From the IMG/VR virus record IMGVR_UViG_3300003872_000008, positions 1-33,307 of that record: DNA of 33,307 bases; one strand, 5' to 3'. Positions within the stretch are counted from its first letter, which is position 1. Every line of letters begins with the position of its first letter. This stretch comes from a virus. The notes under the pieces are model-generated. The model was given only the letters and a program-made list of their open reading frames with translations, was not told the DNA's origin and did not search any database. Made by a program: the position numbers and the translations under genes. This document shows positions 13,556-23,913 of the stretch, one piece after another.

Positions 13556-14737
13556 TCAGACTGCAGATGCATCGTTCAGCAGGCAGAAGCTCTCGGGGTG
13601 TCTGACACCGATATCAACGTCCTGTATGACCCGGAACCACGTCTGGTTCGTCTCGAAAGATGTTCCCGCCTGCATCGAAGCTGCTATCTCTATCCCCGTC
13701 CACTGCGCCACTATCAGCTCCTGCCAGTTCCCGAAGTAGACCTCCGTGAGGTTGGTCCCTGTTCCCTTCGTGAGGTTGGTGGGGAGCTGGGTGGTCATGA
13801 AGTAGGGGTATTCGACGAGCTGCTTGTCTTTCAGTCCTTCGACCCAGCGCATGTAGTCCCCTGTTCCTGTCGCCTTCAGCTTCTTCAGCTTCCTGATGAC
13901 CGCAGGGTGAGTGATGAATGCGAGAGAACCTCTGAGAGTGTTCGCCTGCGCCAGCTCGAACTCCATATCGATGGCGTGGTCGAAAGTGAAGTCTCCGCCG
14001 TTTGCGCCGATGGCGACTGTCTTGATTCCTGCTGTGTTCGCTATGCCGACGGGGGTGCTTCCTGTCCCGTCGCCCCGCAGAGCCTTGATATCGAGCTCGA
14101 GGGCAATCGCCTGAGCGAAGTCCCTCCTGATGATGGTCTCCACCGAAGGGTTCGCCAGCCTGATGAGCCTGTTCGATACTCGCATCAGGGCTGCCATGGT
14201 CTTCGGAGTGAGCTGGAGCTGACCGAAGGCGAGGTCAGAAGCGGTGATGGCGGTGTTCTCGCCGACCCAGTATACGATGGCTCCGCCTGTCTGCTTCGGA
14301 ATATCCACGGGGCTGCCTACCAGCTGGTCGAGGGACGTTGCACCAGCCCTCGTCACGACAGCTTCAGCCCGGATGAGTTCGATGAGCTGTGGTATATACT
14401 GCACGGGGACGATATAGCCGCCTGCGGACGGGGTTCCTGCGGCGAGGTCCTTCCTCTTCGTAGCCTCCTCGACGACCTCCTTCTCGAACTCTGCGTCTTC
14501 CCATTCCCCAAACAGGATTCCACGAAACGCTTTCGCCAGCGAGAACTCCCGCTTCGCCATCTCCTCTTCCAGCCCGGGAATCTTGAACTTCTTGAGCTGT
14601 GTCTCGAGGTATTCCAGCCGCTTGTCAATCGTCTGTATGAGCTCGTCGTGGTTCGTGAGCTTCTCACTCACCTCTGTTCGGAGAGCCTTCAGCTCCTCAA
14701 CCGCCTTTTCCACAACAGCCATAGGGTCTTTCGCCAT
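13556..14737 (-). CDS. Major capsid protein, HK97 fold
   Basis: 393 residues. Residues 1-90 form a coiled-coil delta/scaffold domain (VEELKALRTEVSEKL, IDKRLEYLETQLKKF). The mature part probably begins near residue 95-105 (LAAGTPSAGGYIVPVQY), the usual HK97-type cleavage zone. Then come the E-loop and P-domain patterns (IPKQTGGAIVYWVGE, LTPKTMAALMRVSNRLI) and A-domain (ALRGDGTGSTPVGIANT). The last codons of the protease gene (GGAGGT) serve as ribosome site; one base separates the genes. It forms the icosahedral shell. Confidence 0.96.
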   Translation of the reverse strand: MAKDPMAVVEKAVEELKALRTEVSEKLTNHDELIQTIDKRLEYLETQLKKFKIPGLEEEMAKREFSLAKAFRGILFGEWEDAEFEKEVVEEATKRKDLAAGTPSAGGYIVPVQYIPQLIELIRAEAVVTRAGATSLDQLVGSPVDIPKQTGGAIVYWVGENTAITASDLAFGQLQLTPKTMAALMRVSNRLIRLANPSVETIIRRDFAQAIALELDIKALRGDGTGSTPVGIANTAGIKTVAIGANGGDFTFDHAIDMEFELAQANTLRGSLAFITHPAVIRKLKKLKATGTGDYMRWVEGLKDKQLVEYPYFMTTQLPTNLTKGTGTNLTEVYFGNWQELIVAQWTGIEIAASMQAGTSFETNQTWFRVIQDVDIGVRHPESFCLLNDASAV

Positions 14738-14738
14738 T

Positions 14739-15911
14739 TCATGAACCTCCTATACTTCTGCGTGTGCTCTGAAGCTCATCCAGCAGACTCTTCAGCCTCT
14801 CTTCCGGTATGCCTTCCCCTGAAGGCTCACCGCCGTGGGGGGCATCGGAGCGATAGGCGGTCGCCAGCTCCTCCACTGTGTCTGAGAGGCTGTCGAGCTT
14901 CGCTTCCATATGAAGAATGAGCTTCAGTATCTCAGAAAGCTCCCGACGCTCCAGATTCGGGAGCTGGTTCAGCACGAACTCGACGGGGTCATACTCCTTG
15001 TATTCGGGGACTTCCATCTCGAAGCGCCGGTAGTATTTCGCCAGAAAGGAGTATGCCCGCTTCCTCACATCTTCAGGGATGTCCACCCCACCTCTGGCAC
15101 CGAGCACCGCCGCCATAGCAGCGATGACCCCACCCTTTGTGGCGGTCAGCTTCCCGCTGATGACCCGAGCGAAGGGGAGCTTGTAGTCGCCGAAATTCTT
15201 TGACCCCCGCTTCCCGACCACGAACCCCCTCGCATACATACCGAAGTTCACTTTTTCTTTTTCCCCGCTCCCATCGGACGAAGCCCACCTCCTGATTTCA
15301 TCCCTTGCCCGTGCGCCGTCCCAGCTCCGCTCCTCAGAAAGCGGGAGATTCCCGTCGCCTGTGATAGACCAGCCTTCGCCTTTCAGCTCTTCTCCGAATG
15401 CTTTGATAGTCAGTTCCGCCAGCTCTTTCTCTATCCCGTCCCCTTCCTCGACATGCTTCTGCAGTGCTTCGGGGTTGGCGGGGACGAGCACCTGTGATAT
15501 TTCTATCAGCTCGCTCTTCGTGTATATCCGCCTGACCTCGTCATCTCCCGGCTCGTCTTCCACAGGGATGAAGCCGATGCTGAATGCGGCGATGCCCTTC
15601 TTCGCCAGCTTGTATGCCCAGTCCGCCTCCTCATTCCCTTCCCCCACGAAATACTGATACTTCGCCACCCACCTGTTTCCCTGCCTCCGCAGCTCCTTCA
15701 CCATTCCTATCTGCTTGCGCAGGTCGTCGTATCTATGAGAAGAAAGAAGAACGGGATGCTTCATGTAGTTTTCCACGTTGATACCGGAGGCTTTCACTAC
15801 TTCCCCGTGCCTATCTTTCACTTCTGTGCTGATGACAGCCTCGAAAGTATAGGGTTCTCCGTCTACCTCTTTCAGACTTTCTGGCTTGAAAACCTTGAAA
15901 ATTGTGCTCAT
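14739..15911 (-). CDS. Prohead serine protease (S78-like) with C-terminal extension
   Basis: 390 residues. The protease domain spans about 1-150: DRHGEVV near 33-39, HPVLLSSH with probable catalytic His59, FSIGF with nucleophile Ser111, and ELIEIS with acidic residues 134/137, as in HK97-type proteases. Residues about 195-300 hold a second domain (WDGARARDEIRRWAS, YKLPFARVISGKL, GARGGVDIPEDVRKRA) often joined to such proteases in phage and prophage genomes. A C-terminal helical region (about 320-390) may act as scaffold. ATG at 15911 has AAGGAGGAG upstream. Confidence 0.92.
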   Translation of the reverse strand: MSTIFKVFKPESLKEVDGEPYTFEAVISTEVKDRHGEVVKASGINVENYMKHPVLLSSHRYDDLRKQIGMVKELRRQGNRWVAKYQYFVGEGNEEADWAYKLAKKGIAAFSIGFIPVEDEPGDDEVRRIYTKSELIEISQVLVPANPEALQKHVEEGDGIEKELAELTIKAFGEELKGEGWSITGDGNLPLSEERSWDGARARDEIRRWASSDGSGEKEKVNFGMYARGFVVGKRGSKNFGDYKLPFARVISGKLTATKGGVIAAMAAVLGARGGVDIPEDVRKRAYSFLAKYYRRFEMEVPEYKEYDPVEFVLNQLPNLERRELSEILKLILHMEAKLDSLSDTVEELATAYRSDAPHGGEPSGEGIPEERLKSLLDELQSTRRSIGGS

Positions 15912-15954: not shown

Positions 15955-16227
15955 TCAATCTTTCACCTCCTCCTTGTCTCTGAAGTCCCAGCCGGCATCA
16001 AGCAGGCTCAGAATCAGGTCGACGTGGCTGTATCCTTCCTTCACGCTGTCTTCTATGCCTTCTTCACCCATCACACCATACCGAACGAGGACCTTCGGAA
16101 GAGAGCGGACCACCTGCATCACCTCGCTGTCCCCCCAGAAGGACTGAATGACCCCTTCTCCGTCCTCCCGCACATAGAGAACCGCTGACTGCCCTCCTTT
16201 TCTCAGCTTCCACTTCCACACCTTCAC
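15955..16227 (-). CDS. Small protein between portal and protease, unknown
   Basis: 90 residues starting from GTG at 16227, which overlaps the portal stop (GTGA) and has GGGAGGTG upstream. The longer frame back to 16443 only reads through the portal gene. The sequence begins with a small basic beta segment (VKVWKWKLRKGGQSAVLYVR) and ends in acidic helices. No family recognised; it is probably a minor head protein or assembly factor by position. Confidence 0.7.
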   Translation of the reverse strand: MKVWKWKLRKGGQSAVLYVREDGEGVIQSFWGDSEVMQVVRSLPKVLVRYGVMGEEGIEDSVKEGYSHVDLILSLLDAGWDFRDKEEVKD

Positions 16228-19013
16228 AGTGCACCTCCCAGACTGATGTTTTCGATATCGTCCAGAACAGCCTCCGTCAGCTGCCAGAGGGGCGACCCCT
16301 GACGGAGAATGCCGAGCGCCCGCACCTCGACAAGGACCGCCTGAAACTCCCAGAGATTGGTCAGGTGGTAGCGGAACCTGTCGCTGACCAGTTCGCTGCT
16401 CAGGGTGGGTCCTTTCAGGCTGACCTCCCAGATGGTTCTCCACGTCGTCCCGAACAGGCTGATGCGCTTCTCGTGCAGCAGCTTCCCCTCCTCATAGTTC
16501 GAGAAAGCGGGGTGCGGGGGGAACAGAGCACTGAGAATGCTCTGAATATCTGCGGGGGAGTAGTCGAACTTCTCCAGAACTTCCCTCAGCGCTTTCGCCA
16601 TCTTGGTCTCGCTGCGGAGGAGCGGGAGCGGCTGACGCAGGCTGTCTATCCTTTTCCCGCCGGCATACGCCTGTGCCAGATGAGTCATCTCGTGGAACAG
16701 GGTGCTGACCACTCTGTCCACATCTCTCAGGGCGGACTGAAGGAATATCTCGCCCGATGCAGAAGTGTATTTCCCCAGCGTGTCGGCGGGGAGCTTCGTC
16801 ATCCTGATGCGAGTCGGAGCAAGCCGGGTGAAGACCTTCACCAGCCGAGGGTCGTGATGCTCGAGGTTCTTCAGGTAGTCCATCGCCCCGAGCTGCTCCA
16901 TCTTCTCTCGTGCGGCAGGGGTCATCACACCCATCCACCTCGCATAGTTCGCACCTATTTCCACCTTCGGCTCCCGTCCCGTGAAGACAGTATCTTTGAC
17001 CACGGGGACGAGAACACAGCGGCAGTTGATGACTTCCGCTGCCGGAGCTGTCGGGTCGCCGGGGAACCTGCAGCCATTCGGGAACTTCTTTCCAACCAGC
17101 TGTATATATCCGTCCTGTAGAGCATGCGAAGAGCGAACATACTCATCCTTCGCTGTCACCCACATATTTTTTTTTATCCCTGCCGCCTCAAACATCTTCA
17201 TGCGCCCGCTCATCACCGCAGAAACAGTCTCTGTGCGGGCGATGGTGAGCGCACGGGAGGAAGCCATGTTGTAGACCCTTCGTATTCTGTCCTGTATCTC
17301 GTTCACAGTCTCCCCACGGACAAGACCTTCTGTGATGGCGAGCTTCAGGTCCCTCTTGAGTGTGCGGAGTATCTGTTCAGGGATGGTCTTGATGCGGAGG
17401 TTGAGTGTGCCGAGCATCTCTTTTTTCAGGGGTTCATATGCGAACCCTGTCCACCCGATTTCCTTTGGTGTGTATTCGAGCGTGCGGTCGACTGCCTTCT
17501 CGTAGAACCTCTCGAGTATCCCCCTGAGCTCCCGCAGCTCCCCGTCCCAGTCGAGGAGGATTTCCGCATAGTCCTTCCGGATGAGCGCTTTCAGCGAGGG
17601 GAGGTTCCTGATTTCCTCGAGGACTTTCACCCGCTGGCGGTAGAAAAACCCCTTCATCTTCTTCTGGAGTGCTTCCTCCAGCGGGGCATACACATCCTCG
17701 ACGAACTGCTCCCAATAGCGAATCTTCTCGAACTCTTCCTTCGATGCATCCTTGGGTATGGGCTTTGGGGGTGCCTTCTCCCCTGTGCCCTCCCCCATAC
17801 TCCCCATGGGGACCTTCGTCGGCTCAGCCCACCAGCTGTCGCCCCATGGGACCTCTGCCAGCCCCAGCTCCAGCCTGCGGTTGATTTCATTCAGAGGGTA
17901 TCCCATCTTCCACAGCTTCTCTGCGACCTCGACCTTCTTATCGAAGTCCTCCTGCAGTGCTTCGACGTTGGCGAGGTCGAACTTTGGATATATCGACCCG
18001 TCCCCGATGTCTGCGAAGAGGGAGTGATACAGGGTGTCCTCCATCAGCTTCAGGCGGGGGATGATGGTCTCCTGCCAGAAAGTCTTGTGGGCGGTCTTGA
18101 TGCCCTCGTAGCTCTTCACGTCCTCGTATATGCCGAGGACGACGGGGTTCGTCCCGAAGGCGGTGAAGATTTCCTCTCGAGTGATTTTCTTCATATCGAC
18201 GAACTGCATATCCCGCTGCGTTATCTGGCTTTCCTTGAAGTCCATCCCCCCCTCGAGGACTGCTATCCGATGCGCTTTCGACACTCCTGCGTGCCTGTCC
18301 TCGAACTGCTGGCGGAGCCTCCTGAACTGTGCATCGCTGAGGGTCTCGGGGACCTTGATATAGCCCGACAGAACCGCCCCCTGCTCGAAGAAGTTCCGGT
18401 TGAAAAGACTGCTCAGGAAGTCCTGTTCGATTGAGAGTATCACCACGTCGAGCGGGGACAGCCCACGGATATTGTTCTCTGCGACAGGGTTGTAGTGCTT
18501 GAAATGCACCACCTCGAACGGCTCCAGCTTCTCTTTTTCCCGATACACCCAGTAGAGTAGGTCGCCCTCTTCGTTTGTCACCGCCCTCATGTGGCGGGGG
18601 TGCAGGAGCCGCATACTGGACGGTATCTGCGTGATATTCTTCCGCTCCAGATACCAGAACGCCTCCCCCCATGTGTCCAGCAGCATCGCTGTCCGCTTCA
18701 GCATTTCTCGAAAAGAATAGTCCGGGTTGGGGCGATCGAAGAGGCTCAGTATCTTTCTATCCCGAACAGGAGCCTCTTCATTCCCCTTTTCCTGAACTAT
18801 GAGGAGCTCTACGCTCGCTATGTTTTCCGCTATCTTCAGGATGGAGCGATACGCCCAGACCGAAGCCTGAAAGCGGTTCGTGTTCAGAATGTCCCTGCTG
18901 AAGCGGAAAGAAGAGCGAAAAAACCACAGGTCGTCGACTGTCTGACCGATGATTCCGCCTTTTCTGCGGAATTTCGAGAGGATTTTCCTGACTCCCTCGA
19001 ACACTATATCCAC
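16224..19013 (-). CDS. Portal protein fused to MuF-like domain and C-terminal HExxH metallopeptidase-like domain
   Basis: 929 residues, about twice the size of a typical portal. Residues about 30-390 are an HK97-type portal (FEVVHFKHYNP, ISLEQ-type helix, LSDAQFRRLRQQFEDRHAG, FGTNPVVLGIYEDV). Residues about 530-668 are MuF-like/minor head protein with ALTIARTETVSAVMSGRM, SSHALQDG and the closing NCRC (663-666). Residues 700-929 carry FHEMTH (HExxH at 774-778) followed by LAQAYAG and, later, a Glu at 889 in WEFQA, a plausible third zinc ligand. The tail may be injected or act on the capsid or host. GTG start at 19013; it overlaps the terminase end by 10 bases. Confidence 0.9.
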   Translation of the reverse strand: MDIVFEGVRKILSKFRRKGGIIGQTVDDLWFFRSSFRFSRDILNTNRFQASVWAYRSILKIAENIASVELLIVQEKGNEEAPVRDRKILSLFDRPNPDYSFREMLKRTAMLLDTWGEAFWYLERKNITQIPSSMRLLHPRHMRAVTNEEGDLLYWVYREKEKLEPFEVVHFKHYNPVAENNIRGLSPLDVVILSIEQDFLSSLFNRNFFEQGAVLSGYIKVPETLSDAQFRRLRQQFEDRHAGVSKAHRIAVLEGGMDFKESQITQRDMQFVDMKKITREEIFTAFGTNPVVLGIYEDVKSYEGIKTAHKTFWQETIIPRLKLMEDTLYHSLFADIGDGSIYPKFDLANVEALQEDFDKKVEVAEKLWKMGYPLNEINRRLELGLAEVPWGDSWWAEPTKVPMGSMGEGTGEKAPPKPIPKDASKEEFEKIRYWEQFVEDVYAPLEEALQKKMKGFFYRQRVKVLEEIRNLPSLKALIRKDYAEILLDWDGELRELRGILERFYEKAVDRTLEYTPKEIGWTGFAYEPLKKEMLGTLNLRIKTIPEQILRTLKRDLKLAITEGLVRGETVNEIQDRIRRVYNMASSRALTIARTETVSAVMSGRMKMFEAAGIKKNMWVTAKDEYVRSSHALQDGYIQLVGKKFPNGCRFPGDPTAPAAEVINCRCVLVPVVKDTVFTGREPKVEIGANYARWMGVMTPAAREKMEQLGAMDYLKNLEHHDPRLVKVFTRLAPTRIRMTKLPADTLGKYTSASGEIFLQSALRDVDRVVSTLFHEMTHLAQAYAGGKRIDSLRQPLPLLRSETKMAKALREVLEKFDYSPADIQSILSALFPPHPAFSNYEEGKLLHEKRISLFGTTWRTIWEVSLKGPTLSSELVSDRFRYHLTNLWEFQAVLVEVRALGILRQGSPLWQLTEAVLDDIENISLGGAL

Positions 19014-20167
19014 CTCACTCCTATTTTACCTGCTCCCTCGTATGTGAACAGGGCATATCGCAGGGCATCCATCAGGTGGTCGTTGTATTTGGCTGGCTTA
19101 TCAATGAATTCTCCCGTCTTGTCCGTATCCCACATATAGCTGTTCAGCTCATCTATGGTCTTCACGCAGGAGGAAAACACTTTCAGTTTCCCGTTCTCGA
19201 ACAGCCCCTGCACGTGGGTGATACCTGCCAGCACATCCTTCTTCGCCTTTCTGATGCGGAGTCCTTTTTTCCGCAGGATAGCGAGAAGCTCTGCGTTCTC
19301 TGGGTCCGCATAGATGATTCTGTCCTCATATCCCTGCAGTGCCCTGACTATATCGTCAGGGAGCTTCTTGGAGTGTTTCCATTCGTTGAAGATGTAGAAG
19401 GTTTCCGTTTCGGGGTCTGCTGCTATCCAGATGATGGCGGTGGGGTTGTTGAATCCTGTGTCCATACCTATGAAAATGTCCCAGTCGGAGGGGATTTCAA
19501 AGGAATTCACCACCTCATACGTGGGGTATATCAGCCCTTCGGGTTTCGTGAACTGTCCCTCGAAGCGCATACGGAACTTCCAGTCGGGAAGACGCTCTTT
19601 CGCCTTCTGAATGTTCTCACGGGGATAGAAGGGGTTGTCCCAGCTGGTAGGGTTCCTCAGCTCTATGTCCGGGTCGCCTTCCAGCCACTTGTCCCAGACC
19701 TCAGTTTTCAGCCAGTTCAGGGCATACGGGGTGGTGAGCAGACCGACGAACCCCCCCCGATAGGCTATCCTCTGCAGGGCGGTCTCCCACCACGCCACAG
19801 GGAACAGACCCGCTTCGTCCCCGAAGATACCTTTCGGGTGTATCCCCTGCATCCGGTCTGCGTCTACTGCGGAAATGAAATAGACAGTCCCCCACTGCAG
19901 GCGCAGCACCATCTCCGTCTTGTTGTAGTCATGCGGGATTTTCTCCTCCTGCAGGAAGTTCAGGATGTATTTGATTGGGTTTCGCTTCAGCATGGGGATT
20001 GTGGGGGAAGATACAATCCACTCCTCGCCCGGGGACTGCAGCATGGCTATATAGAGCCAGCGGGGGAGGAGGTATGTTTTCCCTGTCCCTGTGCCGCCGA
20101 TGAGCGCCCGTATCTGCTTCGTGGACAACACCATCGCCAACTGATAGCTGAGGAGGTCAATCCGCAC
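19004..20167 (-). CDS. Terminase large subunit
   Basis: 387 residues, slightly short for the family. ATPase: Walker A GGTGTGKT (24-31), Walker B GIFGDEAG with Asp117 and Glu118. Nuclease: FIGMDTGF with Asp236, IIYADPE with Asp288, and the last acidic cluster YNDHLMDALRYAL with Asp363/Asp367. It drives DNA packaging at the portal and cuts the concatemer. Its start lies 11 bases inside the methyltransferase gene. All catalytic residues are present. Confidence 0.95.
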   Translation of the reverse strand: MRIDLLSYQLAMVLSTKQIRALIGGTGTGKTYLLPRWLYIAMLQSPGEEWIVSSPTIPMLKRNPIKYILNFLQEEKIPHDYNKTEMVLRLQWGTVYFISAVDADRMQGIHPKGIFGDEAGLFPVAWWETALQRIAYRGGFVGLLTTPYALNWLKTEVWDKWLEGDPDIELRNPTSWDNPFYPRENIQKAKERLPDWKFRMRFEGQFTKPEGLIYPTYEVVNSFEIPSDWDIFIGMDTGFNNPTAIIWIAADPETETFYIFNEWKHSKKLPDDIVRALQGYEDRIIYADPENAELLAILRKKGLRIRKAKKDVLAGITHVQGLFENGKLKVFSSCVKTIDELNSYMWDTDKTGEFIDKPAKYNDHLMDALRYALFTYEGAGKIGVRWI

Positions 20168-21371
20168 CTTTCCTCCTCGCTTTCCCCCCCGTGAACTCCT
20201 CCCACCTCCTGACTATCACGTCGCAGTATCTCGGGTCTATCTCGATGAGACGTGCTTTTCGCCCTGTTTTCTCACACGCTATCAGTGTCGAACCTGAGCC
20301 TGCGAAGGGGTCGAGGACGATATCGCCCTGCTCTGTGGAGTTCAGGAGGGCGTTCTCGATGAGTGCCACAGGCTTCATAGTGGGGTGTAGCTTCGACTTG
20401 GACGGCTTCGGTATCTCCCAGACGCTTGTCCTGAACTGCCCCCTCCCGTAGAAGCGGTGTTTTTTCACCCAGCCGTAGAGAATCGGCTCATGCTGGTAGT
20501 CATAGTCAGCTCTGCCGAGGACAGGAGCGCTTTTCTTCCACACGAGGACATGTCTGCAGGGCATCCCCGCATCCTGCAGAGCGAGCAGAAATGTGGTGAG
20601 CCAGTCTCCCACAGGCGACGTGACGTAGTAGCACGAATACTCTGCGAAGAGGTCTCTGATGATAGAGAAGACTGTGAAAAGAAGAGCCCTGAGCTGTGCC
20701 GGGGAGAGGTCATCGTTCGGGATATCCTCTCTGCCTTTCGATGCTCCCGCCTCCTGCAGGAAGCGGGTCTTCTCACCGTAGCTCACACCATATGGCGGGT
20801 CTGTGAACAGCATATGCACACGCTCCCTGCCGAGCAGACGGGAGTATACCGACGGGTCCGCAGCGTCCCCGCAGATGAGCAGGTGGTCTCCCATCTGCCA
20901 GATGTCGCCCGGGCTGGTGGCTGCCTTTTCGGGAACTTCCGGGACATCATCCTGCCCTTCTACCTCCTCCAGCTCTCTGGGGAGGTCAAGGTCGTCCCAA
21001 TCGAACCCCGTGAGCTCGATATCGAACCCCAGCTCCTCCAGCGTCTCCAGCTCCACTTTCACCAGCTCCATATCCCACTCCCCCAGCTCTGTGAGCCTGT
21101 TGTCCGCCAGCCTGTATGCCTTGATTTGGGCGGGGGTCAGGTGTTCCGCTCTGATGACCGGGACCTCTCTGATGCCGAGTTTCTGACAGGCGAGGAGCCT
21201 GCCGTGTCCCGCTATGATTTCGTTATCCTTCGTGATGATGATGGGGTTCAGGAACCCGAACTCCCGTATAGAAGCAGCTATCATGTCCACCTGCTCCTTC
21301 GGGTGCTGCTTCGGGTTGTTCACGTAGGGGACGAGGCTGTCAATATCTACATACTCAACCCTGACTTTCAT
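20157..21371 (-). CDS. ParB/sulfiredoxin-like domain fused to DNA methyltransferase
   Basis: 404 residues. Residues 1-100 are a ParB/Srx-type nuclease-like domain (LVPYVNNPKQHPKEQVDMIA, then GHGR at 55-58). Residues about 155-395 are an amino-methyltransferase with catalytic DPPY (191-194), HPTMKPVAL near 329 and SAM-binding DPFAGSG (354-360). Motif IV precedes motif I, i.e. the beta-class order, giving N6-adenine or N4-cytosine methylation. No cognate endonuclease was seen, so it may protect phage DNA or mark packaging sites. It lies between the two terminase genes and overlaps both. Confidence 0.93.
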   Translation of the reverse strand: MKVRVEYVDIDSLVPYVNNPKQHPKEQVDMIAASIREFGFLNPIIITKDNEIIAGHGRLLACQKLGIREVPVIRAEHLTPAQIKAYRLADNRLTELGEWDMELVKVELETLEELGFDIELTGFDWDDLDLPRELEEVEGQDDVPEVPEKAATSPGDIWQMGDHLLICGDAADPSVYSRLLGRERVHMLFTDPPYGVSYGEKTRFLQEAGASKGREDIPNDDLSPAQLRALLFTVFSIIRDLFAEYSCYYVTSPVGDWLTTFLLALQDAGMPCRHVLVWKKSAPVLGRADYDYQHEPILYGWVKKHRFYGRGQFRTSVWEIPKPSKSKLHPTMKPVALIENALLNSTEQGDIVLDPFAGSGSTLIACEKTGRKARLIEIDPRYCDVIVRRWEEFTGGKARRKGAD

Positions 21372-23094: not shown

Positions 23095-23913
23095 CTATAT
23101 CTGGCACACCTCGCACGCCTCTCCGAACATATCCAGCTGTGCATCATGCAGGGACAGGCGTCTGACGACTTCTTTCGCTGTCGCATGATCACGGAGACGG
23201 GTATGATACCCCTGAGCGTTCAGCTCTTCCTCCAGCTCTCTGAGCCTGAGAATATTCCTCTTCCCTTCTTCATCTTTCCAGCAGAGCTGGTAGTCCCTCC
23301 AGCTGCTGAGTATACAGGGGAAGCACCCGACCCGTGAATGACCACGGGAATAGAGAGGATTTGGCTCCACTCCGGCACCCTTCAGATATGCGAACACCTG
23401 CTCCTCCGTCCAGTCCACGATTGGAAACCTGCATCTGATATGAGTGAGCTTTTCAAGGTGTCTTTTTCTCAAATAGCCGTTGTTGTTGAGCCAGTCCGAA
23501 TACTTCCATGTATCTTCAGGGCTGATATCCCCATATTTCTCCTTTCTCCTTCTGCTCTCTTCTGCTCGTATGCCGAACCAGAGCTCCCCGACGTCCTTCC
23601 TCTCCATCAGATACAGAGCTACGGGGACCTGTTTCAGGAGTGCGGTGCAGAACCTCATGCGGGAATTGGGAAAGCGCTTTTTCTTCCGTATCAGGGACAG
23701 CAGGTCGTCTCCTTCAGGGTGTCTGAGCCTGACTATCCGCACGCCGAGGGTTCGCTCGAGATAGTCCAGATATCGGTATGTCTCGGAAGACTCGAAGCCC
23801 GTGTCCGTGAAAATAGGGAGAACTTCCGTGTGCTTCTCCAGCGCCAGCAGGAGTGTGGCAGTGCTGTCTTTCCCGCCCGATACAAGGACTGCCACTTTCG
23901 CATCAGCTTCCAT
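23095..23913 (-). CDS. PAPS reductase-family ATP pyrophosphatase
   Basis: 272 residues. ATP-binding loop SGGKDS (12-17), then FTDTGFESSETYRYL (35-49), RMRFCTALLK with Cys89, and the cysteine pairs GCFPC (197, 200) and CEVC (267, 270). The family activates substrates with ATP for sulfur or redox chemistry (CysH, DndC, tRNA thiolation). Phages often carry members of unknown substrate. The four C-terminal cysteines could bind zinc or iron-sulfur. It overlaps the zinc-ribbon gene by 11 bases, suggesting joint expression. No dnd partners were seen. Confidence 0.85.
   Translation of the reverse strand: MEADAKVAVLVSGGKDSTATLLLALEKHTEVLPIFTDTGFESSETYRYLDYLERTLGVRIVRLRHPEGDDLLSLIRKKKRFPNSRMRFCTALLKQVPVALYLMERKDVGELWFGIRAEESRRRKEKYGDISPEDTWKYSDWLNNNGYLRKRHLEKLTHIRCRFPIVDWTEEQVFAYLKGAGVEPNPLYSRGHSRVGCFPCILSSWRDYQLCWKDEEGKRNILRLRELEEELNAQGYHTRLRDHATAKEVVRRLSLHDAQLDMFGEACEVCQI

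What the first reader, a model, noticed from the sequence alone, without database searches (positions are those of the whole stretch)
16224..19013. Portal-MuF protein carrying a C-terminal HExxH metallopeptidase-like domain
The 929-residue protein joins portal (about 30-390), MuF (about 530-668, ending NCRC) and an extra 230-residue domain with HEMTH at 774-778 and a possible third ligand Glu889 in WEFQA. Portal-MuF fusions and MuF proteins with variable C-terminal effector domains are known; a zinc-peptidase-like domain attached to every portal subunit would place up to twelve enzymes at the packaging vertex. They could act in capsid maturation or be delivered to the host.
Basis: partly seen in the sequence, partly recalled or inferred. 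Interest (0 to 1): 0.75.

Follow-up and report, generated by a model that had tools for sequence, protein, structure and literature searches.

The report
Phage portal protein with peptidase tail
A virus of bacteria carries, fused to the protein ring through which its DNA enters and leaves the head, an extra domain that looks like a metal-dependent protein-cutting enzyme; such add-ons are known on this class of head proteins and probably act in the infected cell, so this is an interesting new example rather than a new kind of system.

Summary
In detail: window:16224-19013 (minus strand) is one 929-aa frame with an HK97-type portal (54-372), MuF (556-668) and a ~255-aa tail with HEMTH at 774-778. 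The tail's first half (about 720-788) is a real zincin N-lobe: profiles of ArdC/polyvalent-protein metallopeptidases find it at E=1e-5, far above shuffles and 6420 other ORFs, and an alignment-based model resembles zincins there. The third metal ligand (Glu889, 'EFQA') fits the gluzincin motif but is not proven. Nearly all of about 140 portal-MuF or MuF relatives stop after MuF; the few with a tail carry different things (two other zincins, a JAB-like domain; on unfused MuF a glutamine-deamidase toxin and a kinase-like domain). A separate S78 prohead protease lies next door. This favours a swappable, virion-carried effector, released from the portal by proteolysis and ejected with the DNA, over a capsid-maturation role. 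MuF proteins with metallopeptidase tails, and portal-MuF-enzyme fusions, are already published; unusual here are the covalent link to the portal and a zincin unlike the usual MuF zincins. New member of a known kind; activity and delivery untested.

The parts
16224..19013 (-). portal-MuF-zincin fusion gene, 929 aa
17898..18854 (-). portal domain (residues 54-372)
   Evidence: PF04860 E=5.8e-66; TIGR01537 portal_HK97 127 bits, over cut-off
17010..17348 (-). MuF domain (residues 556-668, ends NCRC)
   Evidence: PF04233 E=2.6e-15; alignment with 16 relatives
16227..16991 (-). C-terminal accessory tail (residues 675-929), absent from nearly all relatives
16650..16856 (-). zincin N-lobe (residues about 720-788): helix, three strands, active-site helix
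   Evidence: profile E=1.2e-5; model elements H48-57, E61-65, E73-76, E81-85, H91-110; VIA-align matches to ArdC, IrrE, Spartan, selecase over this range
16680..16694 (-). HEMTH motif, residues 774-778
16317..16397 (-). predicted helix 873-899 with candidate glutamate ligand E889 (EFQA)
   Evidence: model helix 199-225 at middling confidence; best of all positions for the glutamate-helix matrix, but 58% of shuffles reach its score
15955..16221 (-). 88-aa gene (GTG start overlapping the portal stop codon as GTGA), no known family
14739..15911 (-). separate S78 prohead protease gene with extra C-terminal region
   Evidence: PF04586 E=1e-5, over cut-off; phrog_80 head maturation protease
13556..14737 (-). 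HK97-type major capsid protein
   Evidence: PF05065 E=5e-48
19004..20167 (-). terminase large subunit
   Evidence: PF17289, PF17288, PF03237 over cut-off

Best explanation
The tail is an accessory metallopeptidase-like effector domain plugged in behind the portal-MuF fusion. During head assembly every portal subunit carries one copy into the procapsid interior (inferred). The peptidase domain, perhaps with MuF, is cut free of the portal ring by the S78 prohead protease or by itself (inferred), is stored in the head near the portal, and leaves with the DNA to cut a host protein early in infection (inferred from MuF effectors). Shown here: the fusion, the zincin N-lobe with HEMTH, its absence from nearly all relatives, the variety of domains that follow MuF elsewhere, and a separate prohead protease. 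Not shown: metal binding, cleavage, release, delivery, target.
For: Zincin N-lobe well above controls and in an alignment-based model. The closest relatives (37% identity over portal-MuF, or 51% over MuF) end at MuF, so assembly of such heads does not need a tail. The same position carries other domains in other phages: zincins in L161/L224 and L165, a Prok-JAB-like domain in L061/L105, and after unfused MuF a Gln_amidase papain-fold toxin (L215, 4e-15) and a kinase-like domain (L198, 6e-7). S78 protease present. Literature: 20% of 191 putative MuF toxins have a metallopeptidase domain, and a MuF toxin was detected in a phage proteome (PMC5576092); SPP1 gp7/MuF is targeted to the procapsid interior by the portal, and toxin delivery by this route has been proposed (PMC6316719).
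Against: The portal ring stays in the capsid, so a covalently attached effector must be released first, and no cleavage site or release was shown. [quoted passage not shown] The third ligand is unproven and no homologue of the whole tail was found to show conservation of the active site.
Confidence: 0.48

Rival explanations
1. Self-processing peptidase: its only job is to cut its own chain (or MuF) from the portal, or to trim other inner head proteins, before or during packaging.
For: P1 DdrB, which has a C-terminal metallopeptidase domain, is cleaved before packaging, and self-cleavage was proposed by Iyer et al. (PMC5512222). The tail is covalently tied to the portal, so a release step is needed in any delivery model.
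Against: An S78 prohead protease is already encoded next door; nearly all relatives manage without the tail; other domains found after MuF (deamidase-like toxin, kinase-like) are not peptidases.
Confidence: 0.25
2. Catalytically dead or purely structural domain: a zincin fold kept for binding (DNA, portal, host protein) without proteolysis.
For: The glutamate ligand is not established and its spacing from HExxH is atypical. ArdC, the closest solved relative of the N-lobe, does not need its metal-site Glu for its conjugation role in P. putida (PMC7213743).
Against: HExxH is intact within a profile-supported active-site helix, and an ExxA motif is available in a later predicted helix.
Confidence: 0.17
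3. Free zincin made from an internal start (ATG697 with GAGGTGG nine bases upstream) in addition to the fusion, acting as a separate late protein.
For: SD-like match of 6 bases at codon 697, near the start of the tail.
Against: 6 of 102 internal in-frame ATGs in the genes tested have such a match, so it may be chance.
Confidence: 0.07
4. Assembly artefact joining a portal-MuF gene to a foreign zincin gene.
For: One virus contig; no second contig with this tail was found.
Against: Continuous in-frame ORF of similar GC (0.60 vs 0.54-0.56); independent portal-MuF-zincin fusions exist in L161/L224 (two data sets) and L165. The search tools may leave out near-identical records.
Confidence: 0.03

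Closest known systems
MuF polymorphic toxins / MuF-metallopeptidase proteins (Jamet et al. 2017, PMC5576092)
   Same: MuF domain followed by a C-terminal enzyme-like domain in the packaging module; metallopeptidases are 20% of the putative toxins
   Different: here MuF is itself fused to the portal; the zincin is not of the clade seen in the MuF-zincins examined here; lysogeny not shown
Portal-MuF-effector fusions and zincin-like MPTases of polyvalent proteins (Iyer et al. 2017, PMC5512222)
   Same: PBECR and 2H domains fused to MuF and portal domains; zincin-like MPTase is the commonest polyvalent domain
   Different: a portal-MuF-MPTase fusion is not spelled out in the passages read (figures and supplements could not be read)
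ArdC of plasmid R388 (PDB 6i89, 6sna) and related MPTases
   Same: N-lobe sequence and predicted fold (VIA-align Z 7.3, 2.4 A over 65 residues)
   Different: no ArdC-type ssDNA-binding domain was matched; no glutamate-helix motif at the usual 18-32 residues; about 85 extra residues before E889
Portal-MuF-zincin proteins L161/L224 and L165; MuF-zincins L225, Lactococcus phage 62503, Bacillus phage vB_BboS-125
   Same: HExxH domain at the C-terminus behind MuF
   Different: L161, L165 and L225 share YxGRxYP...EVxS, which the window lacks; profile comparison with the window aligns only 12 columns
Geobacillus phage GBK2 and Arthrobacter portal-MuF fusions
   Same: portal-MuF fused protein, 26% identity to GBK2 over 91% of residues 1-680
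   Different: end right after MuF, no tail

Membership tests
Portal-MuF fusion protein | Phage_portal followed by Phage_Mu_F in one chain | tested here: met
   80 viral relatives, many aligned along the portal-MuF length
Gluzincin metallopeptidase | HExxH in an active-site helix behind a helix plus three-stranded sheet | tested here: met
   profile E=1.2e-5; model, high confidence in this part but guided by the supplied homologues; matches to zincins
Gluzincin metallopeptidase | Glu/His ligand in (E,H)xx(A,F,T,S,G) on the next helix, near the two His | tested here: inconclusive
   E889-F-Q-A fits and scores best, but 58% of shuffles score as well; E874, E896 and E921 also fit the short motif; distances not obtainable
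Gluzincin metallopeptidase | metal-dependent proteolysis | not testable with these tools
   bench assay needed
ArdC / polyvalent-protein MPTase clade | N-lobe sequence similarity | tested here: met
ArdC / polyvalent-protein MPTase clade | E[VLM][EQ]AE[SG]-like glutamate helix 18-32 residues after the HExxH start | tested here: not met
   nothing like it at that spacing; best candidate lies 115 residues on. So it is related to, not filed in, this clade
Pfam DUF6782 | score over curated cut-off 27 | tested here: not met
   19.7-21.8 bits
MuF zincins with YxGRxYP...EVxS | shared signature after HExxH | tested here: not met
   absent; hhalign only 12 columns, probability 0.6%
MuF polymorphic toxin | MuF protein with C-terminal extension of at least 100 aa | tested here: met
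   about 255 aa after MuF
MuF polymorphic toxin | carried by a temperate phage | tested here: inconclusive
   33-kb record that may be a fragment; no integrase among the ORFs scanned, but not every ORF was scanned
MuF polymorphic toxin | delivered to the host and toxic or effector-active | not testable with these tools
   needs virion proteomics and infection experiments
Prohead (capsid maturation) protease | is the maturation protease of this head module | tested here: inconclusive
   a separate S78 protease exists, which makes the role unlikely but does not exclude it

The most novel reading that the evidence does not exclude
A twelve-copy ring of peptidases built into the DNA portal that cuts itself loose and is ejected with the genome, using a zincin clade (long insertion between HExxH and the glutamate helix) not described before on MuF proteins.
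Probability: 0.2. Interest if true: 0.6.

Novelty: new member of a known kind. Interest (0 to 1): 0.36.

Why it matters
If the tail is released and delivered, it would show how an effector covalently tied to the portal reaches the host, a step that free MuF proteins do not need, and would give a fixed effector dose per virion set by portal stoichiometry. The survey also suggests that the end of the MuF domain is a recurrent insertion point for enzyme-like domains and inteins.

Tried and rejected
Single-sequence AlphaFold of the tail gave pLDDT 42, an all-helix model without meaning. tblastn of the tail against phages gave one match at E=0.1 in a small Streptomyces phage protein, dismissed as chance; plasmids none. 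Peptide-pattern scans found only small standalone HExxH proteins (L002, L003), and a looser scan found none at E<=1e-3; genome contigs gave none, and 299 genomes only weak matches, of which L130/L135 are ArdC-type. The extra residues of L021, at first taken for a C-terminal tail, turned out to look like an intein inside MuF. PHROG 6577 seemed to extend past MuF but does not match the tail alone. The model's Foldseek E-values are poor (best 0.4 in PDB, 0.07 in BFVD) although many of the top rows are zincins; since the alignment contained ArdC-type sequences, this agreement is partly circular. The top VIA-align rows (M. tuberculosis regulator, Z 7.4, over 46-253) have high rmsd (6-7 A) and were not used.

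Full report
Observation. The window is a 33,307-base IMG/VR virus record. The frame at 16224-19013 is on the minus strand, begins GTG after an AGGAGTGAG-like ribosome site, has no internal stop and ends TGA. Pfam finds Phage_portal at 54-372 and Phage_Mu_F at 556-668; NCBIfam calls the portal HK97-type. Gene order on the minus strand is a putative small terminase subunit (very weak Pfam match), ParB-methyltransferase, large terminase, this gene, an 88-aa gene, an S78 protease gene, an HK97-type capsid gene, connectors, tape measure and a tail-fibre-like protein.

The tail is a zincin-like domain. HEMTH alone would arise by chance in 1.3% of shuffles, so I looked for more. Pfam DUF6782 ('putative metallopeptidase') matches below its cut-off. 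I fetched DUF6782-matching genome loci, built a profile of their metallopeptidase N-lobe without the sequence that the window itself had found, and searched 6420 ORFs: the window tail is the only non-member below E=0.05, at 1.2e-5. An earlier version of the profile gave 24.9 bits against 9.1 for the best of 3000 shuffles, with an alignment running from a helix through the strands into TLFHEMTH. A larger profile from 46 viral homologues (fetched) gave 16.2 bits against 5.2, and hhalign P=1.6e-5 over 57 columns (one member of that alignment had been found through the tail). A model made with homologues mostly trimmed to the N-lobe (so that Glu889 received almost no help) has mean pLDDT 66, about 85-95 over the N-lobe, with one helix, three strands and the HEMTH helix; VIA-align pairs this part with ArdC (Z 7.3, 2.4 A over 65 residues), IrrE, Spartan, selecase and other zincins. 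The agreement is partly circular because ArdC-type sequences were in the alignment.

The third ligand. ArdC-type gluzincins have (E,H)xx(A,F,T,S,G) on the next helix (PMC7213743); in 59 viral segments that matched the motif the glutamate lies 18-32 residues after the start of HExxH. In the window the best candidate is E889 (EFQA), in a predicted helix 115 residues on, but 58% of shuffles score as well, and E874, E896 and E921 fit the short motif too. It is a candidate, not a result. For this reason I do not file the tail in the ArdC clade, only as related to it in its first half.

An accessory, swappable position. 80 viral loci found with a portal-MuF alignment and 80 found with a MuF alignment (the two sets overlap a little) nearly all end within a few residues of MuF where the end can be seen. 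Tails occur in L161/L224 (portal-MuF-zincin, HEFGH), L165 (portal-MuF-zincin, HEYGH) and L061/L105 (Prok-JAB-like, below cut-off, HNHP...SADD motif), and behind unfused MuF in L198 (kinase-like, PI3_PI4_kinase match) and L215 (Gln_amidase toxin). L021 and L170 hold insertions that look like inteins at the NC|RC point of MuF. MuF proteins with a C-terminal HExxH also exist in cultured phages: Lactococcus phage 62503 (HEIGH) and Bacillus phage vB_BboS-125 (HEMGH). The signature YxGRxYP...EVxS shared by L161, L165 and L225 is absent from the window, so the window tail was probably acquired separately.

Function. A separate S78 prohead protease gene lies just downstream, and relatives lack the tail, so capsid maturation is not the likely job. 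Published work shows that the SPP1 MuF protein gp7 is targeted inside the procapsid by the portal and helps to start infection, and proposes that toxins fused to MuF are delivered to the host (PMC6316719; PMC5576092); polyvalent-protein metallopeptidases are proposed to act by self-processing, after injection, or on host proteins (PMC5512222). Because the portal ring remains in the virion, I infer a proteolytic release step, by the S78 protease or the domain itself. My estimate is 48% for a delivered effector, 25% for a self- or head-processing peptidase, 17% for an inactive domain.

Novelty. This is a new member of a known kind, with an unusual zincin and a covalent link to the portal as its distinctive points.

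Noticed in passing
L021:3482-6625; L170:2-1894: Intein-like insertions at the same NC|RC point of the MuF domain in two MuF-containing genes; the TerL gene of L022 (1621-3834) also appears to hold one.
   Followed up: partly
window 16923-16925 (codon 697 of the minus-strand gene): Internal in-frame ATG near the start of the tail, preceded by GAGGTGG at nine bases: possible second start for a free peptidase domain.
   Followed up: partly
window 15955-16221 (-): 88-aa gene overlapping the portal stop codon by four bases (GTGA); no family matched. Small ORFs follow the portal in relatives without tails too, so it need not be an immunity gene.
   Followed up: partly
L007-L013, gene directly after muf: Genes downstream of unfused muf share HDQ[SK]THG-like stretches and carry variable domains, some with HExxH (L008 has two).
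   Followed up: no
window 14739-15911 (-): The S78 protease has a C-terminal region (RSWDGARARDEIRRWASSDG...) resembling one in the protease genes of relatives L021 and L022.
   Followed up: no
window 20157-21371 and 23095-23913 (-): ParB_N fused to an N6/N4 DNA methyltransferase between the terminase genes; a PAPS-reductase-family protein upstream of the packaging genes.
   Followed up: no
L061:5278-5892 and L105: Portal-MuF proteins with a C-terminal Prok-JAB-like domain (HNHP...SADD), in a phage contig and in a Christensenellaceae genome.
   Followed up: partly
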